In this document: piece by piece, positions 21,496 to 63,318 of the stretch
Numbering within the stretch: position 1 is the first letter of the stretch
How the letters are laid out: each line of letters starts with the position of its first letter
NCBI RefSeq assembly: GCF_008831285.2
Contig: NC_045142.1
Span: forward strand, 18,043,354-18,107,353
Direction of reading: 5' to 3'
Source of the DNA: Nymphaea colorata
Taxonomy: Eukaryota; Streptophyta; Magnoliopsida; Nymphaeales; Nymphaeaceae
Length of the DNA stretch: 64,000 nucleotides
The notes under the pieces: generated by a model
The model's input: only the letters and a program-made list of their open reading frames with translations
Told to the model about the DNA's origin: nothing
Database searches by the model: none
Translations under genes and position numbers: made by a program

Positions 21496-21561
21496 ATGAA
21501 GGCGATCGACAGCTCCGCCATCAAGTACTCCTCACATGGCCCTTCCTCTGGCTGCGAGTAG
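21496..21561 (+). other. Possible upstream ORF overlapping the SDR start
   Basis: An ATG 40 bases before the SDR start opens a 21-codon frame that runs over the main ATG in a different frame and stops at TAG. If transcription begins upstream of it, it would reduce main-frame initiation. The transcription start is unknown. Confidence 0.4.
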
Positions 21562-24500
21562 CTCCAGACCCTTCATAGGACACCATCCCTTCAAGTTTGG
21601 GGCACACCCTTCTCCGTTCGCACCCCCCTGCCTTCTTCCCGGCACCTCTCTTCGCAATTCTACTCATTTTCCGACTTGTAGAAGGCTCAGAATGGAAAGC
21701 CAATCGTGTTGCTCTTCTTTTCCCGGTGAGTTTGGTCGTTGGTTCTCTTTCGTTTGGCATTTCCTGACAAAAAGTCGTCTGGTTCTTCTCATCGAACCCT
21801 GTAGAGATGTCGAGATTCTTTTTCGTTCGTGTACGTTCTCTGCATCGTTTAATCTGGTTTGCGCGTTTTGGTCGATGCCAACTTGGTCGCTTTGTCTCTT
21901 TCGCGTTTTCTTGGTCGAATGGTATAATTGAGATCTATTTATGCATTTTAGTTTGATCCTCGGGGTGTGTTTTAAGCATTAGTTCGCACGGTTTTGGTGG
22001 CGATGTTATTTTGTTCCTGGACTCAGACTTCAGAAAATGAAGTGAGAATTTATATGTACAACGGTGGGATGTCAAAGAGATTTTTGCTGAAGCAACGGGA
22101 TAGTTGGTTAGTTTTAAAAGGCGTCTTTGCCTGTTCCTTTTTTGTAAACTGGAGGATGGTATTTGTCGTTTTATTTGCAAGTGGTGTTCTGAACTTTTGA
22201 TGTTATTTTCAGTTGCTTGGGTGCTAGTTCATAGATGAGTCTATCATCGTTTTATGTCGATGGTTTATTTGTTGCTTTTGAGTAGCAAATTTAATGCTGT
22301 TTCCGTAATTAGTTATGATTTGCATGAAATTGGTTGTGGTCTCTGCAGTGTAGATTTGTAGAGCAATGTCTTGCAGGGATTATTCAGAAATCGCCCTGCG
22401 AGTATCTAAAATTTTTTACTAGCCTGCACGTAATTGGTTAACGTCATTCTTTTAAAATTGTTTATTCGAGAGGAGGAAGTGGAGTGCGTTTGAAGTGGAG
22501 GAGGTACCACATTTATTTATCTTAGTTTATTGGGAAAAGCTCGTTAGCATGATTATCACTTTATCTTTCCATGAGTTGGTGACAATATCGGTTCAAGAAC
22601 TTATTTCCATTGGGAACCCCTAGCTGAAGGTTTTGATTCGCTGAACTGCTATACATTTTCTCCCATTTTTTGGTTTAGTTGGAACACCTTCAAAATAGCA
22701 GTTAGCCTTCTGGATATCTCAGTGAATTGTATGGAAGCTGGAAAAATCAATAAAGAAAATAAGTCTAGACATTGCCTAGAATCCTGAATTCCTGATCCTA
22801 TATGTACATATATCGAGATTCTCTTCTCCTAACAGATTTTAATGTCTTAGATCTTGAGTAGTCACCAAGGCTGTAACCAACTGGCCAAGGAATTCTGGAA
22901 GTAATGTGTGTGTTCCACAGCTCATTTGTAGAATCACATGTATTAATTCATGGGGAAGGGTGCTTGCCTTTCTTTGTTCTTTTTACTATAAATGTTGTCA
23001 CAAGTTTGCCTGCCTGGATTTTTTCAGCGAGGTTCTTTTTTCTGGGTATTTTATGGGAAAGATTGTTTTATAGGAAAACACCAGAAATTCAAAAGACTAA
23101 AAATATATAAGAATAACAGAAAGATATAACTTTTTATGTGTTTTACTAATTCTCCTACAAAAATATCGATAATATTCGAAGCAGTAATTTTTAAATGTTA
23201 AAAGAAACACAAGATAGAAAATAAGGGTTTTAAGTACACTAAAATATGTTTTCTGGAAAAAAACTTATGATATTATTGCCAAATATCAAGAGAAATAGTT
23301 ATGATATTTTTAAGATGTCATTATGTTTTGTCCTTCATTTTGTTTTACTCTGTTCTGCTGATATTATTGCAATGTTTTTAAAAAATGTTGTGACGTTTGT
23401 ACAAATGCTAGAGAATAGAATTTACTGGTGATTATACTTGAAAAGATAGAGGCCTAGTTTGGTGAGATTACTTTTTCCTTCCCTTATCCGAGGAGCCAAC
23501 GTACTTTTCTTCAAATCTGCAGATCTCCCTGTCGGTAACTTCATATTTTTTGAGATTGTTATGTTCTTCTAATTTTACTTTACCTTGGCTACTAGTTGAC
23601 ATGTCAACTACTAAGTTGTTACTAGTGATTTAAATCAATGCACTGAGCATCATTTGCAATGGCTATTAGACTGCTAATTTCATAAATACCTTACTCTCTA
23701 TCTCTCTCTTTATCCACACCAACATATGTACATACTATAAATCATTAGAGAATAAAAAAAAATGTCATTCTGTGTATACAGATGCAACTTCTGCGGATCT
23801 GGATGTCTCTTCTGCTGGTTTGATTAGAGAAGAGGATTTACTAATTGTGGGTCCTGGTGTGCTCGGTCGTATTGTGGCAGAAAAATGGAGATTGGTATGC
23901 TTATGTGCAATAAAGCATTCTATTCATTTAAATAACTAGTAATCCTATATTATTTATTGATAGCTTATGATGCATTATGTTTAATTTGTCAGTAGCATTG
24001 CTATAAGTATTATATAATACGTGAAAGATTTTGTCCCGATTGCTGGAAATATATACAGGTACCATTAGCTAAATGCATCTTTATCTTGTAACTTTTTGGG
24101 TTGTGGTAACCTTTTGTTATTCAATTCAAACTAATTAAGATGGTTTCATTTCATCATGGATGGCAAAGATGGAAAATTTTAAATGTTATCCATTTATAGA
24201 GAATTGAACTCTCCTTCATGAGTGATTGTTTGATTGGAATTTGTTGGCAGTGTGTTATGCTCTTAAATGTTGAGAACCTAGCAAAAATTAGAAAAAGGGT
24301 GATTGTTGAATGAACAAGGAGCTTTTTTGATGAACTGGGTCTGTATTTAGGAAATAGTCTTTATTTAAAGGCAATGGTGGGTGCTGAAGCAGTTGATGAT
24401 TTTGGATGGTGGATGGGGCAATGTTGTGTTCGCAGGCACTCTGTAACAATTGGAATAATATATTTATTATTGTTTTTCATAAATTATTCAATGAGATCTG

Positions 24501-27500
24501 ACCTAATGAACTGCCTGACTGCACAGACTGGCTGATCATTCAACCCAATAATGTCGACTGTATATTTTCTCATACAATTTACAAATAGTTAACTGATCTT
24601 TTCCATTTTCAACTGACATTAGTTTGCTACAACTGATTACTTGTTTACTTGCATGCTTCTTGATAAAAAAGAAGGGTTATGACTTCCCCCTGGTTTACGT
24701 GTAAAGCTTCCCATGATTTATGCCCCATAGTTCATCTTGTAAAAGCTTTAACACTTTCTTTGCCTTTCACCTATAAAAGGCCAACCAGGTTACTTTCAAG
24801 TTTTCATGATCTTCAAGTTGTGTAGTCATTACATGGGAAATATCAGTGGATGACATGTGCCGGTACCAGGTCCTGAACATTTGCTTTATTTTGAAAGGCA
24901 ACTGTCGATTCACATGCATTACTTTTATTTCCATTCTCTTCCATGTCCTAGAACTAGGCCAATGCTTAGCTATATCTATAATAGCTTATTCATATCTAAC
25001 AGGAAAATCCAGCGTGCAAAATTTTTGGACAGACAGTGACTACAAATCACCATGATGAGTTGCTTAAGATTGGGATTACACCTTCCCTAAGAGATTCAAA
25101 AACAACATATAAGTTTCCATATGTCATCTTTTGTGCTCCTCCTTCTCAAACCATAGACTATCCAAGTGAATTAAGGTATGTATTGCATTTTAATAGAAGT
25201 GCACAAAATACAAGACCTCCTCCTAAGCGTATTTATACTGGATTTTCTTGCGGCACTTCATGAAAATGTGCATCATACCATTGTCATTGATCAATTAGAA
25301 CTTACTGTCTTTCATTGTTCTTACCTATTATTTTCATTTCAGTTCTTTCTTAGTTTGATATAAAAGCAAAGTATTTGTGGAGTTGATTAAGAAGGTTAAC
25401 TTATCTTGCATTCAAATGTATGATGGGTCCACTAACTCATAATTGTGAATCATTTTCTCTTCTGTTTAGAAATAGGTATCCTTGTGATAGAACTCTTCCT
25501 GCCCCCTGCCACAAGCCTATGGTCTGCAAAATTGGGTTTCTTTCTCTAGTTAGCCTTGTCTACTTCTGTGAAAAAACATGAGATTATTTCATATGAAGCA
25601 CAGGCATAAACTTTTGGAGCAGACAACCTTTAGGCCATAAAATATTCAGTTCAGCACTTGGACATAGGGTAAACCAGTACCACAAACATCAGTTTTTCTT
25701 TTCAAAAAAATGCAAAAAGAGAAAAAAAAATAAAGGGAAACAAAATTGAAAAGATTACTATATTTTGAAAAAAAAAAGCCAAAAAGAAAATGTGTGTTTT
25801 TTGTGTTTTTAGGGAAAAAGTTTTTCGGTATATTTTATTTTTTGACTTTTGAGGATTCTTTTGACATTTTAAATTTTAACAACAATTTTGTAATAATGGA
25901 AAACTCAGATTTTCATAATTTTCTTCATTCTTCCTTAATAATTTTTAGTTTTTTTTGTTTCATGAAATTTTCCTATGAAAACCAAATTCTACGTAATACC
26001 CGAGAAACCTCACTGATAGAAATCTGCAGTTGATATTTGTGACAATGGTGTAAACCTATTTAACTCAGCTAACTTTTGCATGTTAATGGTTACATGTGGT
26101 ATATGACATTTGTTGGATACTAGAGATGTTTTTTTGCTTTTGATGTTATGGCTTGTACTTCAGCAGCATGCAACTCTTTTAACATAGTTAATAAACTTTC
26201 TTATAGAACTTATTTTTTGTAGTTCACATACAACTTTTAGATGGATTATTATGTTGCTAATGGTTGTAAAGTTCTTGCTGCATCTTGTTCTTGACAAACA
26301 CTTAATCTGTTTCTATGAATGGTTATTGTGGCAGTAGAAGATTTTATTAATCTGAATGAATCAAGCAATTTTCAGGCTAGCTGCATCAAAGTGGAGCGGT
26401 GAGGGCTCATTCTTGTTTACATCAAGCACAGCTGTTTATGACTCCGAAGACAATGGGTGGTGCTCTGAGGTATCAATTAGGGAAAGGATATTGGTTTACC
26501 ATTCAGTTCTATTTTCACTTCCCTCTTGTTTCATGCTGCATTGGGGTTGCAAAAGCTTATTGGATGGACATTAAATAATGATGTTAACATAAGCTCCCTA
26601 GAACATCTTCTGAAGTTTAAGCTGAGGCCTTATTGCTAAGTTTCAGGGAGTACCATTAGTGACTTGTTAACTTAATGAACTCGAGGCTCTAACTAATTAT
26701 GCTGTCAATTGATCTATAGTCATTCTTTCACCCCTACAGTACCGAAGCTCTTGTTTTACTTTTCATAGGTCTACTCTTGCTAGCCTTTATTTGTTGCTGG
26801 ACAAATTCACATGTAACCAAGAGTTTTCCATGTTATGGTTTTCTAGGAGTGTCTCACTTTATGCTGTTAACACATGAACATATGGGGAGGAATACTGTGC
26901 TGCATTTTCTTTTTAGATAAAATGATAAATATCATATTAAGCTTCAAATTTAGCCTTTAATGTGGTCTTGTCATCACTTTGATTTCTATGCAGGACAGTC
27001 CAGTTTTGCCAATTGGGAGAAGTCCTCGGGCAGATGTTCTTCTTAAAGCAGAAAAGGAAGTCCTTGAGGTTGGTGGCTGTGTGGTTAGACTAGCAGGACT
27101 TTATATATCCTTGGAGCTGCTTTTATTTTTCACTTTTATACTTATGTATTTTTTAACTTTAAATAACAGAAGTTATAGTATTATGCCATGGAATTAGCAG
27201 ATTGCCTTGACTTTCAATACAGTTCTAGTAAGGGTGCCCACTTATATTGGCTGGAGAAAGGCACTGTTGACAGTCGTCCAGATCATATACTGAATCTTAT
27301 TCACTATGAGGTTACAAGTCTTGCCTTCCATCTTTTTGTTGAAAATGTTTGGCACATCATCTGAAGCACTAAAAGAAAGTTCTGACATTATATTGTCAGT
27401 CTTTTCATAGAGGTTGAGTCTTTGTGGTGTGTGACTTCTTAATTTATTCTTTTCCCTGGATTGCCACGGCAGTGCAGTTGACTAACGTATTCGATGTTGC

Positions 27501-27802
27501 CTATCTTTTGTTTTTTTTTTTTTTTGTCTAGACGGGTAGCTAATTTGGCAATGCCTATTATATCCTTTAGCGTAAAAACAATGGCTTTTACTTTGACAGA
27601 ATGCCAGTTGGTGACTTTTAACCTTGCATAAAGATAAGTAGGTCAATGCATATTGGATCTATCCATTTTGGAGTTAGCCAACCTTATGCTTCTCTGTTAT
27701 GACTGATGGTTGCATACTTGTACATTTGCTACATCCTTTTATGGCTGTATTAGCTATCTTCTAGATGATTTTCTAGAACATCATGCATCAAATCATTTAT
27801 GT

Positions 27803-27834
<32 letters not shown>

Positions 27835-29693
27835 GTGTATCGGGTTGTTTCTGCAATTTCTGTGTTCTTGAATGTTCAATTTGGAACTGTTGGTTCTATG
27901 CTCGTAAGAGCTTTTTGTGTGCCTGCATTATGCATAAAGTAGGTGTTGCCTGTGCCAATATCTCCTGCCATCTGGCAGATTGGCAATATCTCCTTCCATC
28001 GGTCGATATCTCTTGCTGTCAGTAAGCTATCTGTTGATGGTTGAGGTTAATCCTTTGTGAAAACCAGTGTCTGAATGTATTGATTACTTCTTTTTCTTGC
28101 TGTAGCTTCCACCGTTCCACATGAAATGTGAGTCTCTATATTTTGTGCGTTCTTCGGTTTCAGAGGCTTGCTGCCGATAGTAATTTGGAGAATTTATTTA
28201 TTTTCTTTTGAATTTACATGCATACAGTGTGTGATGTATATTGCTAGTGTTTATGTTGTTTTTCTTTTAAATTTATATGCTAGACAGTGCTCTGTATTCT
28301 ATATTGCATACCGTGCTGTTACGGCTGTGTGTTTTCAGTGTATTAATACGTTTTCTACTTAAGGAGCATAGCATGATAACAATTGGTACAGTCACCAATT
28401 GCTTTTATGAGTATATTAAACTTTAAATTCTTTATATATATATATATATATATGTTGGTGTCCTCATACCCAAGTTTTTTGAAAATGCTCTGTACCCACA
28501 GTGGTACCTGTACCTGTTCCCATACGACATAGGGTTTGCATTGATATAAGGGGTGCTTGGATCATAATTTTCATCACCATACCTGAGAAGTTGGATTCTG
28601 GTTGAGACAGGTGTCTGACAAATACTTGATCCAGTGATACCTGATGTCTTCTAGACTGGATTTCTGACTATTATACTCATGACAGGACGCAGCATCTCTT
28701 GCAATTACAATTTTAAAGAAGCAGCTTCGCGGTAGGGTGTTCTTGGGTTGTGACAATCATCCTTTATCGAGGTATGTTTATTAGTGCTATCTTTTGCTTA
28801 AACTTTTCAATCAGAAAATCAAACCAATATTTATGATTTCTGTCAGCATTAATTTTAAAAGAAAAAATTTATGATCAATCGTTTCAGTTCTTGAAACATA
28901 AGCAAGCATAAGTGATTGAAAAGGAAGGACTGGTGTGATGAAGCTTCCATCATTTCATTTCTTGCTGGTTTCATTTCCTCTGCGTCCCTACTTTCGATCC
29001 AACATGCGAGTTTGCATAGCAATTTTCCTGCTTATTTATGATAACACATTCGAATTGTTATTTTGCAGGGTGGAGCTGATGGACATTGTGAATAGAAGCC
29101 GAAAATTCAACAAAACCTTTCAGGGATTTACTGGTAAGATAATTCAGTATGGGTGCACCTAAATACAGTAGATCTCAGATCCTTGTATTACATGTGGTCT
29201 GGAAGCCATACCAAAATCACATTCCTTTCAAATGATCGTATATCCAAAGATCTAATTGTTGAAACCTAGCATTGAAACATGAAGTTGGCCTGGGAAACAC
29301 ACCGAGTTCATGCTACCCGTAAGTAGTAGGTCACACATTTAAAGGCATGAAATAAAACAGTGTCATGGCATTCATGAGTTTCTTGCCCGACTATCGGAAG
29401 AAGGGGCAGGGAATACCTCTTTGTCTGTTTTTTAGTCCAGTAAAGCCAAAGGACATGGTACCTGATGGAATCAAATGCACTCTTAGTTTCCCTGTAATTT
29501 TTCTGTTTGAATATGAGAATCTTGTATACTAATGAAAGATAAAAGCCTTGAAAAGAATCTGTATCTGAAGGTATGCACCTAATGTGCAGGAACTAGTGGC
29601 CCACTGGGGAAGAGGTTAAGCAACTTGAAAACACGCGCCGAGCTTGGTTGGGAGCCAAAATACCAGAGCTTTGAGAGTTTCCTGGGGGTATGA
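21536..29693 (+). CDS. Plastid-type atypical SDR / NAD(P)-binding Rossmann-fold protein
   Basis: Nine exons: 21536-21725, 23782-23894, 25003-25175, 26376-26469, 26994-27104, 27221-27310, 28686-28771, 29069-29133, 29590-29693. The total of 1026 nt gives 341 residues. Residues 1-60 are Ser/Arg/Pro-rich without acids, a chloroplast-transit type leader (MALPLAASSSRPFIG). Next come the dinucleotide-binding motif LLIVGPGVLGR (GxGxxG near 87-92), KFPYVIFCAPPSQT, the strand FLFTSSTAVYD, and the conserved C-terminal blocks GCVVRLAGLY, GAHLYWLEKGTV, IHYEDAASLAI, RVFLGCDNHPLSR and LGWEPKYQSFESFL. These identify the plant/cyanobacterial atypical SDR group with an epimerase-like fold; At1g19690 is the Arabidopsis protein I believe it matches, unverified. 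Substrate unknown. Intron 5 is AT-AC U12-type and is needed for the frame. Intron 1 is 2.06 kb. Confidence 0.87.
27105..27220 (+). other. AT-AC (U12-type) intron of the SDR gene
   Basis: The intron begins ATATCCTT, the exact U12 AT-AC donor consensus, and ends CAATAC. The branch-point-like TGCCTTGAC is at 27203-27211, with its A ten bases before the end. Removing 116 nt joins GGACTTTAT to AGTTCTAGT in phase 0 and restores conserved protein on both sides. No GT-AG pair in this interval does so. Confidence 0.9.
27802..27834. repeat. (TA)n microsatellite in SDR intron 6
   Basis: A pure TA tract of about 33 bases. A second, shorter one lies at 28434-28453 in the same intron. Confidence 0.8.
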
Positions 29694-58660: not shown

Positions 58661-60184
58661 TCAAAAAATTGATTGCTCTCCCAACTCTTGGCCGGCCATA
58701 CCTTCTCTAAGAACCCGCCTGAAGAAATCTTCCAGCGTATCATTCCCGTAGCTTGGAGTTGCATCCGCATCATACTCATCAGTGTCTGGGTTAAGCAGCA
58801 ACATACTTTCTGCAGCATAATACCTTCCAATTTTTCCAAATTCTGCAGCATCTTCCAGAGAAGGGAAGAATTTAACCAAAAAATCAAGAATGCCGATTAC
58901 AAAGTCCATCACTCCTATTGGAACTTTCAGAAACTTGGGTTCCTTGCCCAAAAGTTTGAACAACAATTCTCCCTGCTCAAGTGGTGTTAATGCCTTTCCT
59001 GGTCCACCAATTGGGAGAATCTTGTTAATTTTATCTTCACAAGAGATGCAGTCAGCAATGAAAGAGGCCAAATCCTCTTCGCTGATGGGTTTACAGGCGC
59101 ATAGTTCGCCATCTCCGAACATTACATATGGCTTCCCATCCTTTACCAACTCAACCTGCCCACCTAAACTCTTGAAGAAAGCCGTCGGCCTGACAATGCT
59201 GTAGGTGAAATCCCCATTTTCTGCTTCCTTCTGCAATTCTGCCTCAAACTTCAGCTTCGCTCTTTGAAATTCAAGGAGGGGCTTCTGAACACATATTGCA
59301 GACAACAGAACAAAATGAACAGCCCCGAATTTTTTACCCGCAACGAGACTATTTTTTGTCGCTTCATAGTCGATCTTCCAGGAGTCCTTAACACCACCAG
59401 ATCGACTGGCAAGGCAGGAGACGACTACATCGATTCTGGTGTCCAAGCCCTCCAGAGATCTCTCAAGAGCACTCAATTCAGTTACATCAGAAAAGCAAAC
59501 GTCGGCTCCCCTCAGCTCTTGGAAGGTCTGTTCCTTGCTGTTCTTCCCTTTAATTCCACTCCTCTCTCTGGATACTGCAATCACATTATAACCCCTTTTC
59601 ACCAGTTCCTTCACAACAAATTTTCCAATATACCCGGTTGAACCCACAACCAATACATTGATATCCTGCGGTCTCCTACTTCCAAGCGAAGGCAGTGTTG
59701 CAGACTCAGTGGTGCTAGAAGCCATAACCCGGCGCACACTTTTCCTCTCAAAATTGCTACATAGATGGAAGATCCCAACTGGGTACCCTCCTTTTCTACT
59801 GTATTCATTGCAAGGATGAAAAGCCTTAGATGGGTGCCCATTGTTTCTTACAAACCTCTGAGAAACTTGAGTAGCAATCTTCGCAAACCCAAAATCCTCA
59901 AGTGGGTACTGCAATTTTCTGCTGCTTCCAACAATCGATTCGTTGAGACAGTTACTGAATGATAAAAAATGAGTTTGTTGTGCTTGTCTTATGCAAAGTG
60001 CAGTAGAATCTAGACATAGCGTGGAGTTGAGTCGTGAACTAGAAGAAAAGGAAACGCATCTGGCAGAGCATTTTATGCGACTCGAGGGAAGGAACGCACT
60101 CACATTGACTGGTACCGATGGTGCCGGAAGATGGTGATGGCGGTGTCCTTGGAGAGCAATGGCGTCTGAAGACGTGAGAGCCAT
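58661..60184 (-). CDS. DVR: Divinyl chlorophyllide a 8-vinyl-reductase, chloroplastic
   Basis: A single-exon frame of 507 residues. The enzyme reduces the 8-vinyl group of divinyl (proto)chlorophyllide with NADPH, giving the monovinyl pigment in plastid chlorophyll synthesis. After a Ser/Arg-rich transit leader comes the Rossmann motif [20 protein letters not shown] (GxxGxxG at 181-187). It is followed by [88 protein letters not shown], and [17 protein letters not shown]. The C-terminal helical part has [20 protein letters not shown]. The absence of introns agrees with many plant DVR genes. The part before the Rossmann motif is about 170 residues, roughly 85-90 longer than I remember for Arabidopsis DVR (417 residues). 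Confidence 0.95.
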
Positions 60185-60581
60185 CTGTCCACGGACGACA
60201 CAGAAGTGAAAAGATCATCTGGCACGTTTATGGAAGCGAAGTAAGGAGATTAGGTTCGCTGAAGTGGCAGATTCTGGTGATACATATGAGCCACGACAAA
60301 GTTTATCTCTCTTCTCTCTCTCATTCCAACGGCTCACAAACGATTCGAAAGAAGGAAATATGGGAAGCTGGTGGTGCCCATGTACCTGGTGGAATGATCT
60401 GATCTGAACCGTCGATTTTGCAGATTTGACGGCGTCGATGTAATGTGGGTCTCACTTTTATACGAGAAGTAAATGGATCTGATTCGGTTACTTGCAACAA
60501 CCTGTCAAACCTAATAACCGATATCGAATCTGGATCCTATCACCTAGAATACGATCCAGAAAAATCATCGATGCAATTACA

Positions 60582-60749: not shown

Positions 60750-63318
60750 AATTAAATTTCAGAAATCCAAATCCTTGCCGCAGAAACAAACGAGCCTGAG
60801 TTTGACAGCATCTTGGGTCCCTTTAGAAAAGAATCATACTGCAAGCAAGCAATACAAAGGTTAATGCGCTTCTATCTATCAGGCTACCAGCCTTCTTGAA
60901 TCTGTCCTTTCGAATTTCCATGTTTTGGAAAAATGAAAATTGGAACCATGGTCAAGAACAACATATGGAATTAATACATCAGTCTTCCATTTTGTTCCTT
61001 TACAAAAAAAATTTCTTGCTCCGCTACTTACTATTCTCCAAACCGGTACCTTCTGGTCTGGTCGTTGGAAAGTGTGCCATTTTTATAAGCTCTGGTCATT
61101 GGAATATGTTTCCATTTTATAAACTCGAAAGCAAAAGCAAAGTTACAAGCAAAGATCAGCAGTCACGGATCTCCACGGGCCTTCTCTCAGTCACATGATA
61201 ATCTTAATAACAGCAGGAACAAGAATTAAGTCTGCTGATGTTAGGTAGTTGCCAGTTTATCAAATATTTATTCTAATAGGTGTTTACATGCAGTTCGGAT
61301 TTAGAACAGATAAACATATTGTGAGCATGCAGGGCTCAAAAATCAAAATATCCGGTGTGGAATACACATTCACAAACACACATATTTGGCCTTACCTCTC
61401 CAGACTTTTCGGAATTCATTCGAGCTGCGCTGGGTGGTGTCATTTCTCTAAACTTGCTCTAATCTAAGTTGCAGCATTATTAGAAGAAAATCACCCGACT
61501 CATGGAAGATTATCAGAGAAAGAGAACAACCTCTGCCCAATGACTCAGGAACAAGAAGGGTAGTATAAGAATGGATTGAAGTCTATGTAGCCAAAGACAA
61601 CCTGCCCAGATGCACCTAGCCAGCTCAACGGCTACCAGTGCTTTAGGCAAGTCATCCTTGGCTACAAAGCCTACTCCATTCCTTCGGCATGGCATGGAGT
61701 CGTTTCTGTGCCTTCTCGTCGATTTGGCCTCGTAGCAAGGCACCACCCTCGCTATTGAACTCTAGACCTCCTCCTTCGACTCGAAGTTTGAAAGCAAGAG
61801 ACCTTGTGGGTACAAACTCAAAGTTCTTGTTTCTGTCTGTCTCTCTCTCTCTCTAATAGGATAGAAGCATGGGGAGGTCTGCTTCCTTATTTGTAAGAGT
61901 TTCTGTGGGGACAAGAAGAAGAGAGGATAAATAAAACCCAAGTTGTATTTTTTTTTATTTGTAGCTACCCAATCAAGGCAGACCTTTACCTAATTTTAGG
62001 ATTCTGGTTCAGGAGAGACCAAGTGATTATATATGAGGGATGATTGCTTATATATATATATATACATATATATAGTGTGTGTGTGTGTTGCCCATCCTAG
62101 GGATTGTGGTTTGGTGGGCTTAGGGCAAAAGGAGGAGGGCACTTTTTCCAGAGGTGTTGGGGTTGAAATCAATAAGATCTTATGACGAGGAATATTTTGA
62201 TCACCACAAAGTAGCAAGACGCATTATATAGGCAACTATTCTCTTTATGTACTCTCTAGACCATAAAACATTATATATATATATATAAAGAGAGAAAGAG
62301 AGACAAATTATAGTTATGAATTTAGTTTTGGAGTTTTAAAGGGTGAGGTTTTTGTCATGTTTAAAACATCAAAGTTGTTTTTAAAAAAAAAACATTGAAT
62401 TTTAAAGCAGTCAATTTTTTTGGCAAAAAGGAGAAAAATGACCAAAATCTTGAGAATAAAATGCAAAATAATAAAGTTAGACACATGTTAATAGTAGGTT
62501 TCTAATTCGAAAACCTGCGTTTTAAGATGACAAAGGTGCAACATCCAAGTTAATAGGTGTATTTCGGGCTTGTTTCAAGTGGCAAGGACAAAAGATGAAC
62601 TCCTCACCCGAAAAAATATATGGTAATTAAAAATTACAAAACATTAAAAGGATAAAAACAGGAAAAAAAAACTTATTTTAGCCTGACCTGTTTTAAACAT
62701 TTTTGATATTTTTTTTAAATACATTTTCTATGGCTACGATTCAAATGCATGAATGAGACCTGCATTCTTTTGGTTGCTGATCATTAAGAGAATCGATTCC
62801 CAGTAGTCTATAAATTTTTTTGCACCATTGCTGGCGACCTGTAAAGAAAGGCTTGGCGCAAACGACGTTGATATTCGAAGAAATGTCGACAAAAACTTCA
62901 AAAGCATGCCCTTTCCATGAGGTGCATTCTTTTGACGATCGAAATATGCAGACAATATCACCCACGAGCAAAATTTTCATTTGTTAAATTAATATTTTTT
63001 TAATATTCTCGGTACTAAATATTAATTTTCTCCCTCAAGTGGCCTCTTGCATGCTCCGCGCCTGCCGCGCTTACCAAGGCAAAGATACCAAGGCAAAGAT
63101 TCTCCGGCAACCGGCAAAATCTTCTCCGGCCAATTAATTTTTAAAATCTGCCGGAAAGCCACCACAGAGTACGGCAGATTAGACCGATATGATCATGAGT
63201 ACAATTAGTAGTAGATGGAGTACAAGAAGCAAGTGCTTTGAATCTGTTCATTGGGAGTACTCCACTGGTACTGACAGTCTCAATCGTAAGACAAGGGAAC
63301 TGCTGCAGTGGGGCACTG

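What the first reader, a model, noticed from the sequence alone, without database searches (positions are those of the whole stretch)
27105..27220. AT-AC U12-type intron in the plastid SDR gene
The donor ATATCCTT, branch site CCTTGAC and terminal AC fit the minor-spliceosome pattern exactly. The phase-0 join restores LAGLY followed by SSSKGAHLYW. AT-AC introns are a small minority of all plant introns. If this one is retained when minor splicing is limiting, the enzyme would be truncated before its conserved C-terminal half.
Basis: partly seen in the sequence, partly recalled or inferred. Interest (0 to 1): 0.72.

Follow-up and report, generated by a model that had tools for sequence, protein, structure and literature searches.

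The report
Ordinary AT-AC minor intron, plant gene

Summary
Window 27105-27220 (+) is a 116-nt, phase-0 intron, intron 5 of a gene rebuilt by eye (9 exons, CDS 21536-29693, 341 aa): tat|ATATCCTTG...TGCCTTGACTTTCAATAC|agt. Donor and branch site each match 8 of 9 consensus positions; the branch A lies 10 nt from the end. Of 211 in-frame joins scored against 77 prokaryotic homologs this one is best (116.3 bits, tied with a join giving the same protein); best GC-AG 109.8, best GT-AG 101.9. The junction lies in a motif that 77 of 77 homologs keep without insertion or deletion. The genome carries U11, U12 and U6atac genes; U4atac searches did not complete. The protein is a YeeZ-like Rossmann/SDR relative without an evident catalytic tyrosine; plastid targeting is only hinted. 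Retention would add 30 residues and a stop, losing the last third; mRNA decay is likelier than a truncated enzyme (inference). By motif alone there is no clear genome-wide excess. AT-AC introns are 13-26% of U12-type introns in four plants: a new member of a known kind. No RNA or plant ortholog was available.

The parts
27105..27220 (+). AT-AC U12-type intron (intron 5, phase 0, 116 nt)
27105..27113 (+). U12-type donor ATATCCTTG (8 of 9 to ATATCCTTT)
   Evidence: can pair with U11 AAGGGT (6 bp incl. one G-U) and U6atac AAGGA (5 bp) of the same genome
27203..27211 (+). U12-type branch site TGCCTTGAC, probable branch A at 27210, 10 nt before the intron end
   Evidence: can pair with the U12 snRNA segment GAGTAAGG if the A is bulged
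27219..27220 (+). AC terminus
21536..29693 (+). Coding span of the YeeZ-like gene, 9 exons, 341 aa (exons 21536-21725, 23782-23894, 25003-25175, 26376-26469, 26994-27104, 27221-27310, 28686-28771, 29069-29133, 29590-29693)
   Evidence: Rebuilt by eye, one open frame; homology over residues 82-341; exon 1 and the start codon have no homology support; no RNA evidence
26994..27104 (+). Exon 5, ends ...VVRLAGLY
27221..27310 (+). Exon 6, begins SSSKGAHLYW...
27195..27197 (+). In-frame stop reached if the intron is retained

Best explanation
A U12-type spliceosomal intron of the AT-AC subtype, removed by the minor spliceosome. U11 would recognise the donor ATATCCTT and U12 the branch site TGCCTTGAC; U6atac would replace U11, and the exon after the AC, 10 nt downstream of the branch A, would be joined. 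The join between codons 227 and 228 restores the conserved R-LAG-Y|SSSK segment of a YeeZ-like atypical SDR protein. Shown here: the sequence signals, the reading frame, the fit to the protein family, and snRNA genes with segments that can pair. Inferred: actual splicing, the snRNP steps, plastid location, and the fate of unspliced RNA (decay or nuclear retention).
For: Donor 8/9, branch site 8/9, spacing 10 nt; none of the other 7 introns of the gene combines such a donor with such a branch site (donors of 7/9 to GTATCCTTT go with branch matches of 6/9). Best of 211 in-frame joins. In 77 of 77 homologs there is no insertion or deletion at the junction; R, G and Y left of it and G right of it are invariant. 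The alignments to 3ius and 3gpi run through the junction. U12 88.9 bits, five U6atac matches with best 97.6, U11 75, all over the Rfam cut-offs, with 0 of 14 control genomes ringing in each search. U11, U6atac and U12 segments can pair with donor and branch site. The unspliced reading runs into a stop.
Against: No RNA or orthologous plant sequence was available. The next-best joins score only 0.9 bits (AT-AG 27105/27232) and 1.9 bits (AT-AG 27107/27222) lower, so the exact acceptor rests on the splice signals more than on the protein. The indel count was made on an alignment of the assumed join. The genome-wide pattern shows no clear excess over its control once repeats are set aside. An unbulged pairing test found no run of 6 or more between U12 and the branch site, and U6atac's only 6-bp run with the donor was at another place, CAGGGA. 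U12 introns are biased against phase 0 and, in many plants, towards the 5' part of genes (PMC7367187, PMC10639083, passages); this one is phase 0 and two thirds along the coding sequence. U4atac was not tested.
Confidence: 0.95

Rival explanations
1. The intron is an AT-AC intron removed by the major (U2) spliceosome.
For: Such introns exist: PMC8280824 (passages) speaks of 85 major AT-AC introns or related subtypes in its human data, and PMC6310983 (passages) mentions the class in its background.
Against: Strong U12 donor and branch site at the right spacing.
Confidence: 0.02
2. The exons are joined at GT-AG or GC-AG sites, or at another AT-AG or AT-AC acceptor, and the AT-AC 27105/27220 pair is chance.
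For: In-frame alternatives exist; AT-AG 27105/27232 scores 115.4 and the best GC-AG (27116/27228) 109.8 against 116.3.
Against: The best GT-AG join scores 101.9. The alternatives lose or add residues beside a motif that 77 of 77 homologs keep without indel. The joint chance of donor, branch site and AC at fixed exon borders is about 4e-9 under window base composition, a post hoc figure.
Confidence: 0.02
3. The gene is a decaying copy and the 116 nt are an insertion rather than an intron.
For: No transcript evidence.
Against: All 9 exons join in one open frame of 341 aa with homology over residues 82-341; the genome search with the exon 5-7 protein matched this gene only (3 matches, all here).
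Confidence: 0.01

Closest known systems
U12-type (minor) spliceosomal introns, AT-AC subtype
   Same: |ATATCCTT donor, CCTTRAY branch element close to the 3' end, AC terminus; [quoted passage not shown]
   Different: GCCTTGAC in place of TCCTTAAC; phase 0 and in the 3' part of the gene, both less usual; nothing outside the known range
Bacterial YeeZ-like NAD-dependent epimerase/dehydratase proteins (PDB 3ius, 3gpi; the name YeeZ is recalled)
   Same: Sequence match over residues 165-287 (3ius, E 4.1e-8) and 169-292 (3gpi, E 2.4e-5), through the junction
   Different: The plant protein has about 80 residues before the homologous part and SSSK where the 77 prokaryotic homologs mostly have GPGR

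Membership tests
U12-type intron, AT-AC subtype | Donor ATATCCTT at the exon border | tested here: met
   8 of 8, and 8 of 9 with the ninth base
U12-type intron, AT-AC subtype | Branch site like TTCCTTRAY (consensus recalled; PMC3488318 gives TCCTTAAC) near the 3' end | tested here: met
   TGCCTTGAC, 8 of 9; branch A 10 nt from the intron end
U12-type intron, AT-AC subtype | AC terminus with correct reading frame | tested here: met
U12-type intron, AT-AC subtype | No polypyrimidine tract needed (recalled) | tested here: inconclusive
   Pyrimidine fraction 0.55 before the acceptor, within the 0.45-0.68 of the 7 other introns
U12-type intron, AT-AC subtype | Host has U11, U12 and U6atac snRNAs | tested here: met
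U12-type intron, AT-AC subtype | Host has U4atac snRNA and minor-spliceosome proteins | not tested
   RF00618 and PF14968 were sent but did not complete; no other protein was sought
U12-type intron, AT-AC subtype | Removed by the minor spliceosome in vivo | not testable with these tools
   needs RNA-seq in wild type and minor-spliceosome mutants
YeeZ-like atypical SDR (Rossmann fold) | Gly-rich nucleotide-binding motif and family homology | tested here: met
   GPGVLG at residues 87-92, the first two Gly present in 76 of 77 homologs; homology over residues 82-341
YeeZ-like atypical SDR (Rossmann fold) | Catalytic YxxxK of classical and extended SDRs (recalled) | tested here: inconclusive
   No Tyr in RADVLLK at 202-208, and none among the four commonest residues listed at each of those columns for 77 homologs; the place was chosen by recall of GalE. 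No Pfam or NCBIfam SDR model over its cut-off
Plastid-targeted protein | N-terminal transit peptide | tested here: inconclusive
   About 80 residues before the homologous part, no acidic residue among the first 53, rich in P, L, S, A, R and F; exon 1 is itself a prediction and no targeting predictor was run

The most novel reading that the evidence does not exclude
The gene was acquired from bacteria after the last common eukaryotic ancestor (for example with the plastid) and the AT-AC U12-type intron was gained afterwards, making it a datable case of minor-intron gain, an event held to be extremely rare.
Probability: 0.12. Interest if true: 0.55.

Novelty: new member of a known kind. Interest (0 to 1): 0.17.

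Why it matters
It is a clean gene-level example for annotation: a pipeline limited to GT-AG and GC-AG introns would misread this gene around the LAGLY|SSSKG junction. If the gene proves to be of plastid or other late bacterial origin, it would also bear on whether U12-type introns can still be gained. As it stands it confirms a known class.

Tried and rejected
Rejected: GT-AG and GC-AG alternatives for the same exon pair; a chance motif at that position. The genome-wide count of the AT-AC pattern did not serve as independent support: 47 matches against 26 control matches, and by eye 23 of the 47 rows come from three repeated sequences (16, 5 and 2 rows; some rows are the same site with two ends). 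Repeats among the control matches were not listed. The 30 loci fetched there were not examined further. Pfam and NCBIfam gave no family over its cut-off for the spliced protein. No cyanobacterium is named among those 80, so cyanobacterial origin was not tested.

Literature. Eight paper searches did not bring up this intron; intron databases and supplements could not be searched, so this is no proof that it is unlisted. AT1G19690, a gene number recalled for the Arabidopsis ortholog and not verified, gave 0 papers. U12 with Rossmann and chloroplast gave one paper, not opened; Nymphaea colorata with U12 gave two, not opened. Of the papers opened I saw passages only. One paper on plant U12 splicing efficiency is not held.

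Full report
Observation. Window 27105-27220 (+) reads tat|ATATCCTTGGAG...GATTGCCTTGACTTTCAATAC|agt. I rebuilt the gene around it by eye on the + strand. Nine exons, 21536 to 29693, give one open frame of 341 residues; seven of the eight introns are GT-AG and intron 5 is AT-AC, 116 nt, phase 0, after codon 227. The donor matches ATATCCTTT at 8 of 9 positions and the best branch-site match near the 3' end is TGCCTTGAC, 8 of 9, with its A 10 nt from the intron end. No other intron of the gene combines the two: introns 2 and 4 have donors 7 of 9 to GTATCCTTT with branch matches of 6 of 9, and intron 3, with a branch match of 7 of 9, has a donor of 6 of 9. The consensus for the ninth donor base and for the nine-base branch site is recalled; [quoted passage not shown]

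Is it the right join? I scored the in-frame, stop-free joins with donor at 27000-27199 and acceptor up to 27299 that have GT-AG, GC-AG, AT-AC, AT-AG, AT-AA or AT-AT ends (211 joins) against a profile of prokaryotic homologs. The homologs came from a scan with a three-sequence alignment; the tool kept 80 loci, and 77 stop-to-stop frames were used, three being dropped by a length filter of 150-450 residues. The AT-AC join scores best at 116.3 bits, tied with an AT-AT join shifted by 2 nt that gives the same protein. Next are AT-AG 27105/27232 (115.4) and AT-AG 27107/27222 (114.4); the best GC-AG is 109.8 and the best GT-AG 101.9. The small margins over the other AT joins mean that the exact acceptor is fixed by the splice signals and not by the protein alone. 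In an alignment of the protein as joined at AT-AC with the 77 homologs, the junction lies in a motif that is mostly R-L-A-G-[IL]-Y|G-P-G-R; R, G, Y and the G after the junction are each 77 of 77 in the homologs, and none has an insertion or deletion at the junction. The window protein has SSSK where the homologs mostly have GPGR.

Chance. In the window the pattern ATATCCTT, 40-400 nt, CCTTRAY, 6-16 nt, AC occurs once on the two strands; 40 first-order Markov copies gave on average 0.05 per strand. In the whole genome the pattern ATATCCTT N75-105 CCTTRAC N5-12 AC has 47 matches against 26 for the same pattern reversed; by eye 23 of the 47 rows come from three repeated sequences. The motifs by themselves therefore show no clear excess and would not establish an intron; their place at the required junction does.

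Machinery. The window lies in contig 5 of a 407.8-Mb genome of 783 contigs. The genome has one U12 snRNA match (88.9 bits), five U6atac matches of which the best is 97.6 bits and one U11 match (75 bits), all over the Rfam cut-offs. U11 AAGGGT can pair with ATCCTT of the donor (6 bp, one G-U), U6atac AAGGA with TCCTT (5 bp), and U12 GAGTAAGG with the branch site if the A is bulged. Without the bulge no run of 6 or more was found for U12, and the only 6-bp run of U6atac with the donor was at another place, CAGGGA. U4atac and the AT-AC-specific protein CENATAC were asked for but did not complete.

The protein. Homology to prokaryotic proteins runs from residue 82 to 341, best to two planctomycete sequences (31.6% and 31.4% identity). 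Solved relatives are 3ius (E 4.1e-8, residues 165-287) and 3gpi (E 2.4e-5, residues 169-292), both aligned through the junction. No Pfam or NCBIfam model is over its cut-off. The Gly-rich motif GPGVLG is present, but no tyrosine is found where I expected the YxxxK of SDR enzymes, in this protein or among the commonest residues of the 77 homologs, so 'SDR' describes the fold and not a shown activity. The first 53 residues hold no Asp or Glu, in keeping with a plastid transit peptide; but they come from exon 1, which is predicted without homology support.

Mechanism and consequence. The likeliest course is recognition by U11 and U12, exchange for U6atac, and removal by the minor spliceosome. PMC11039992 (passages) reports that CENATAC is needed for U12-type introns with AT-AN ends and that mutations in the plant protein DROL1 impair AT-AC U12 introns in Arabidopsis; PMC8280824 (passages) describes CENATAC. 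If the intron stayed in, translation would add 30 residues and stop at 27195-27197. Three introns follow, so decay of the mRNA or nuclear retention, which PMC8329584 (passages) describes for retained U12 introns, is likelier than a truncated protein; this is inference.

Known kind. PMC7367187 (passages including part of its Table 2) gives AT-AC as 23% of U12-type introns in soybean, 26% in Arabidopsis, 13% in maize and 22% in rice, and PMC6310983 (abstract and passages) gives AT-AC as 0.06% of splice sites averaged over its plants. Against typical behaviour, this intron is phase 0 and in the 3' part of the gene, while U12 introns are biased against phase 0 (PMC7367187) and towards 5' positions (PMC2426677; in 112 of 290 streptophytes in PMC10639083; passages). 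Neither trait is outside the known range.

Most novel reading. The homologs that I fetched are prokaryotic because that collection holds only prokaryotes, so bacterial origin after the last common eukaryotic ancestor is possible but not shown. If true, the U12 intron would have been gained later; PMC10639083 (passages) calls a case of significant minor-intron gain extremely rare.

In passing, intron 3 of the same gene holds a second U12-like pair (GTATCCTTG at 25476, TTCCTTAAT at 25931-25939, AG at 25947-25948, branch A 10 nt before the end). In 300 second-order Markov copies of the gene's introns the strict pattern averaged 0.01; but it was found by scanning the whole window, where a looser pattern averages 0.175 per strand. 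It may be chance.

Noticed in passing
25476-25948: U12-like GT...AG pair nested inside GT-AG intron 3 of the same gene: GTATCCTTG donor, TTCCTTAAT branch site (A 10 nt before the AG end), 473 nt. Expected 0.01 per intron set of this gene in simulation, but found by a whole-window scan. Possible twintron or chance.
   Followed up: partly
27560-27568: A perfect U12 donor ATATCCTTT in intron 6; no CCTTRAY followed by AC or AG within 500 nt was matched: probably chance.
   Followed up: partly
27311-27316: Intron 6 has a weak donor, gag|GTTACA, as reconstructed.
   Followed up: no
58661-60214 (-): Intronless 517-residue open frame with NAD(P)H-binding/NmrA domains, by recall like plastid divinyl chlorophyllide reductase: a second Rossmann/SDR-type gene in the window.
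   Followed up: partly
61575-61675 (-): MIR169_2 microRNA precursor match, 55.7 bits.
   Followed up: no
G000 contigs C2, C4, C8, C10, C11, C13: A repeat beginning ATATCCTTTGCATACTTTGTTTGACA (16 of 47 rows by eye) carries U12-like donor and branch motifs and inflates genome-wide motif counts.
   Followed up: no
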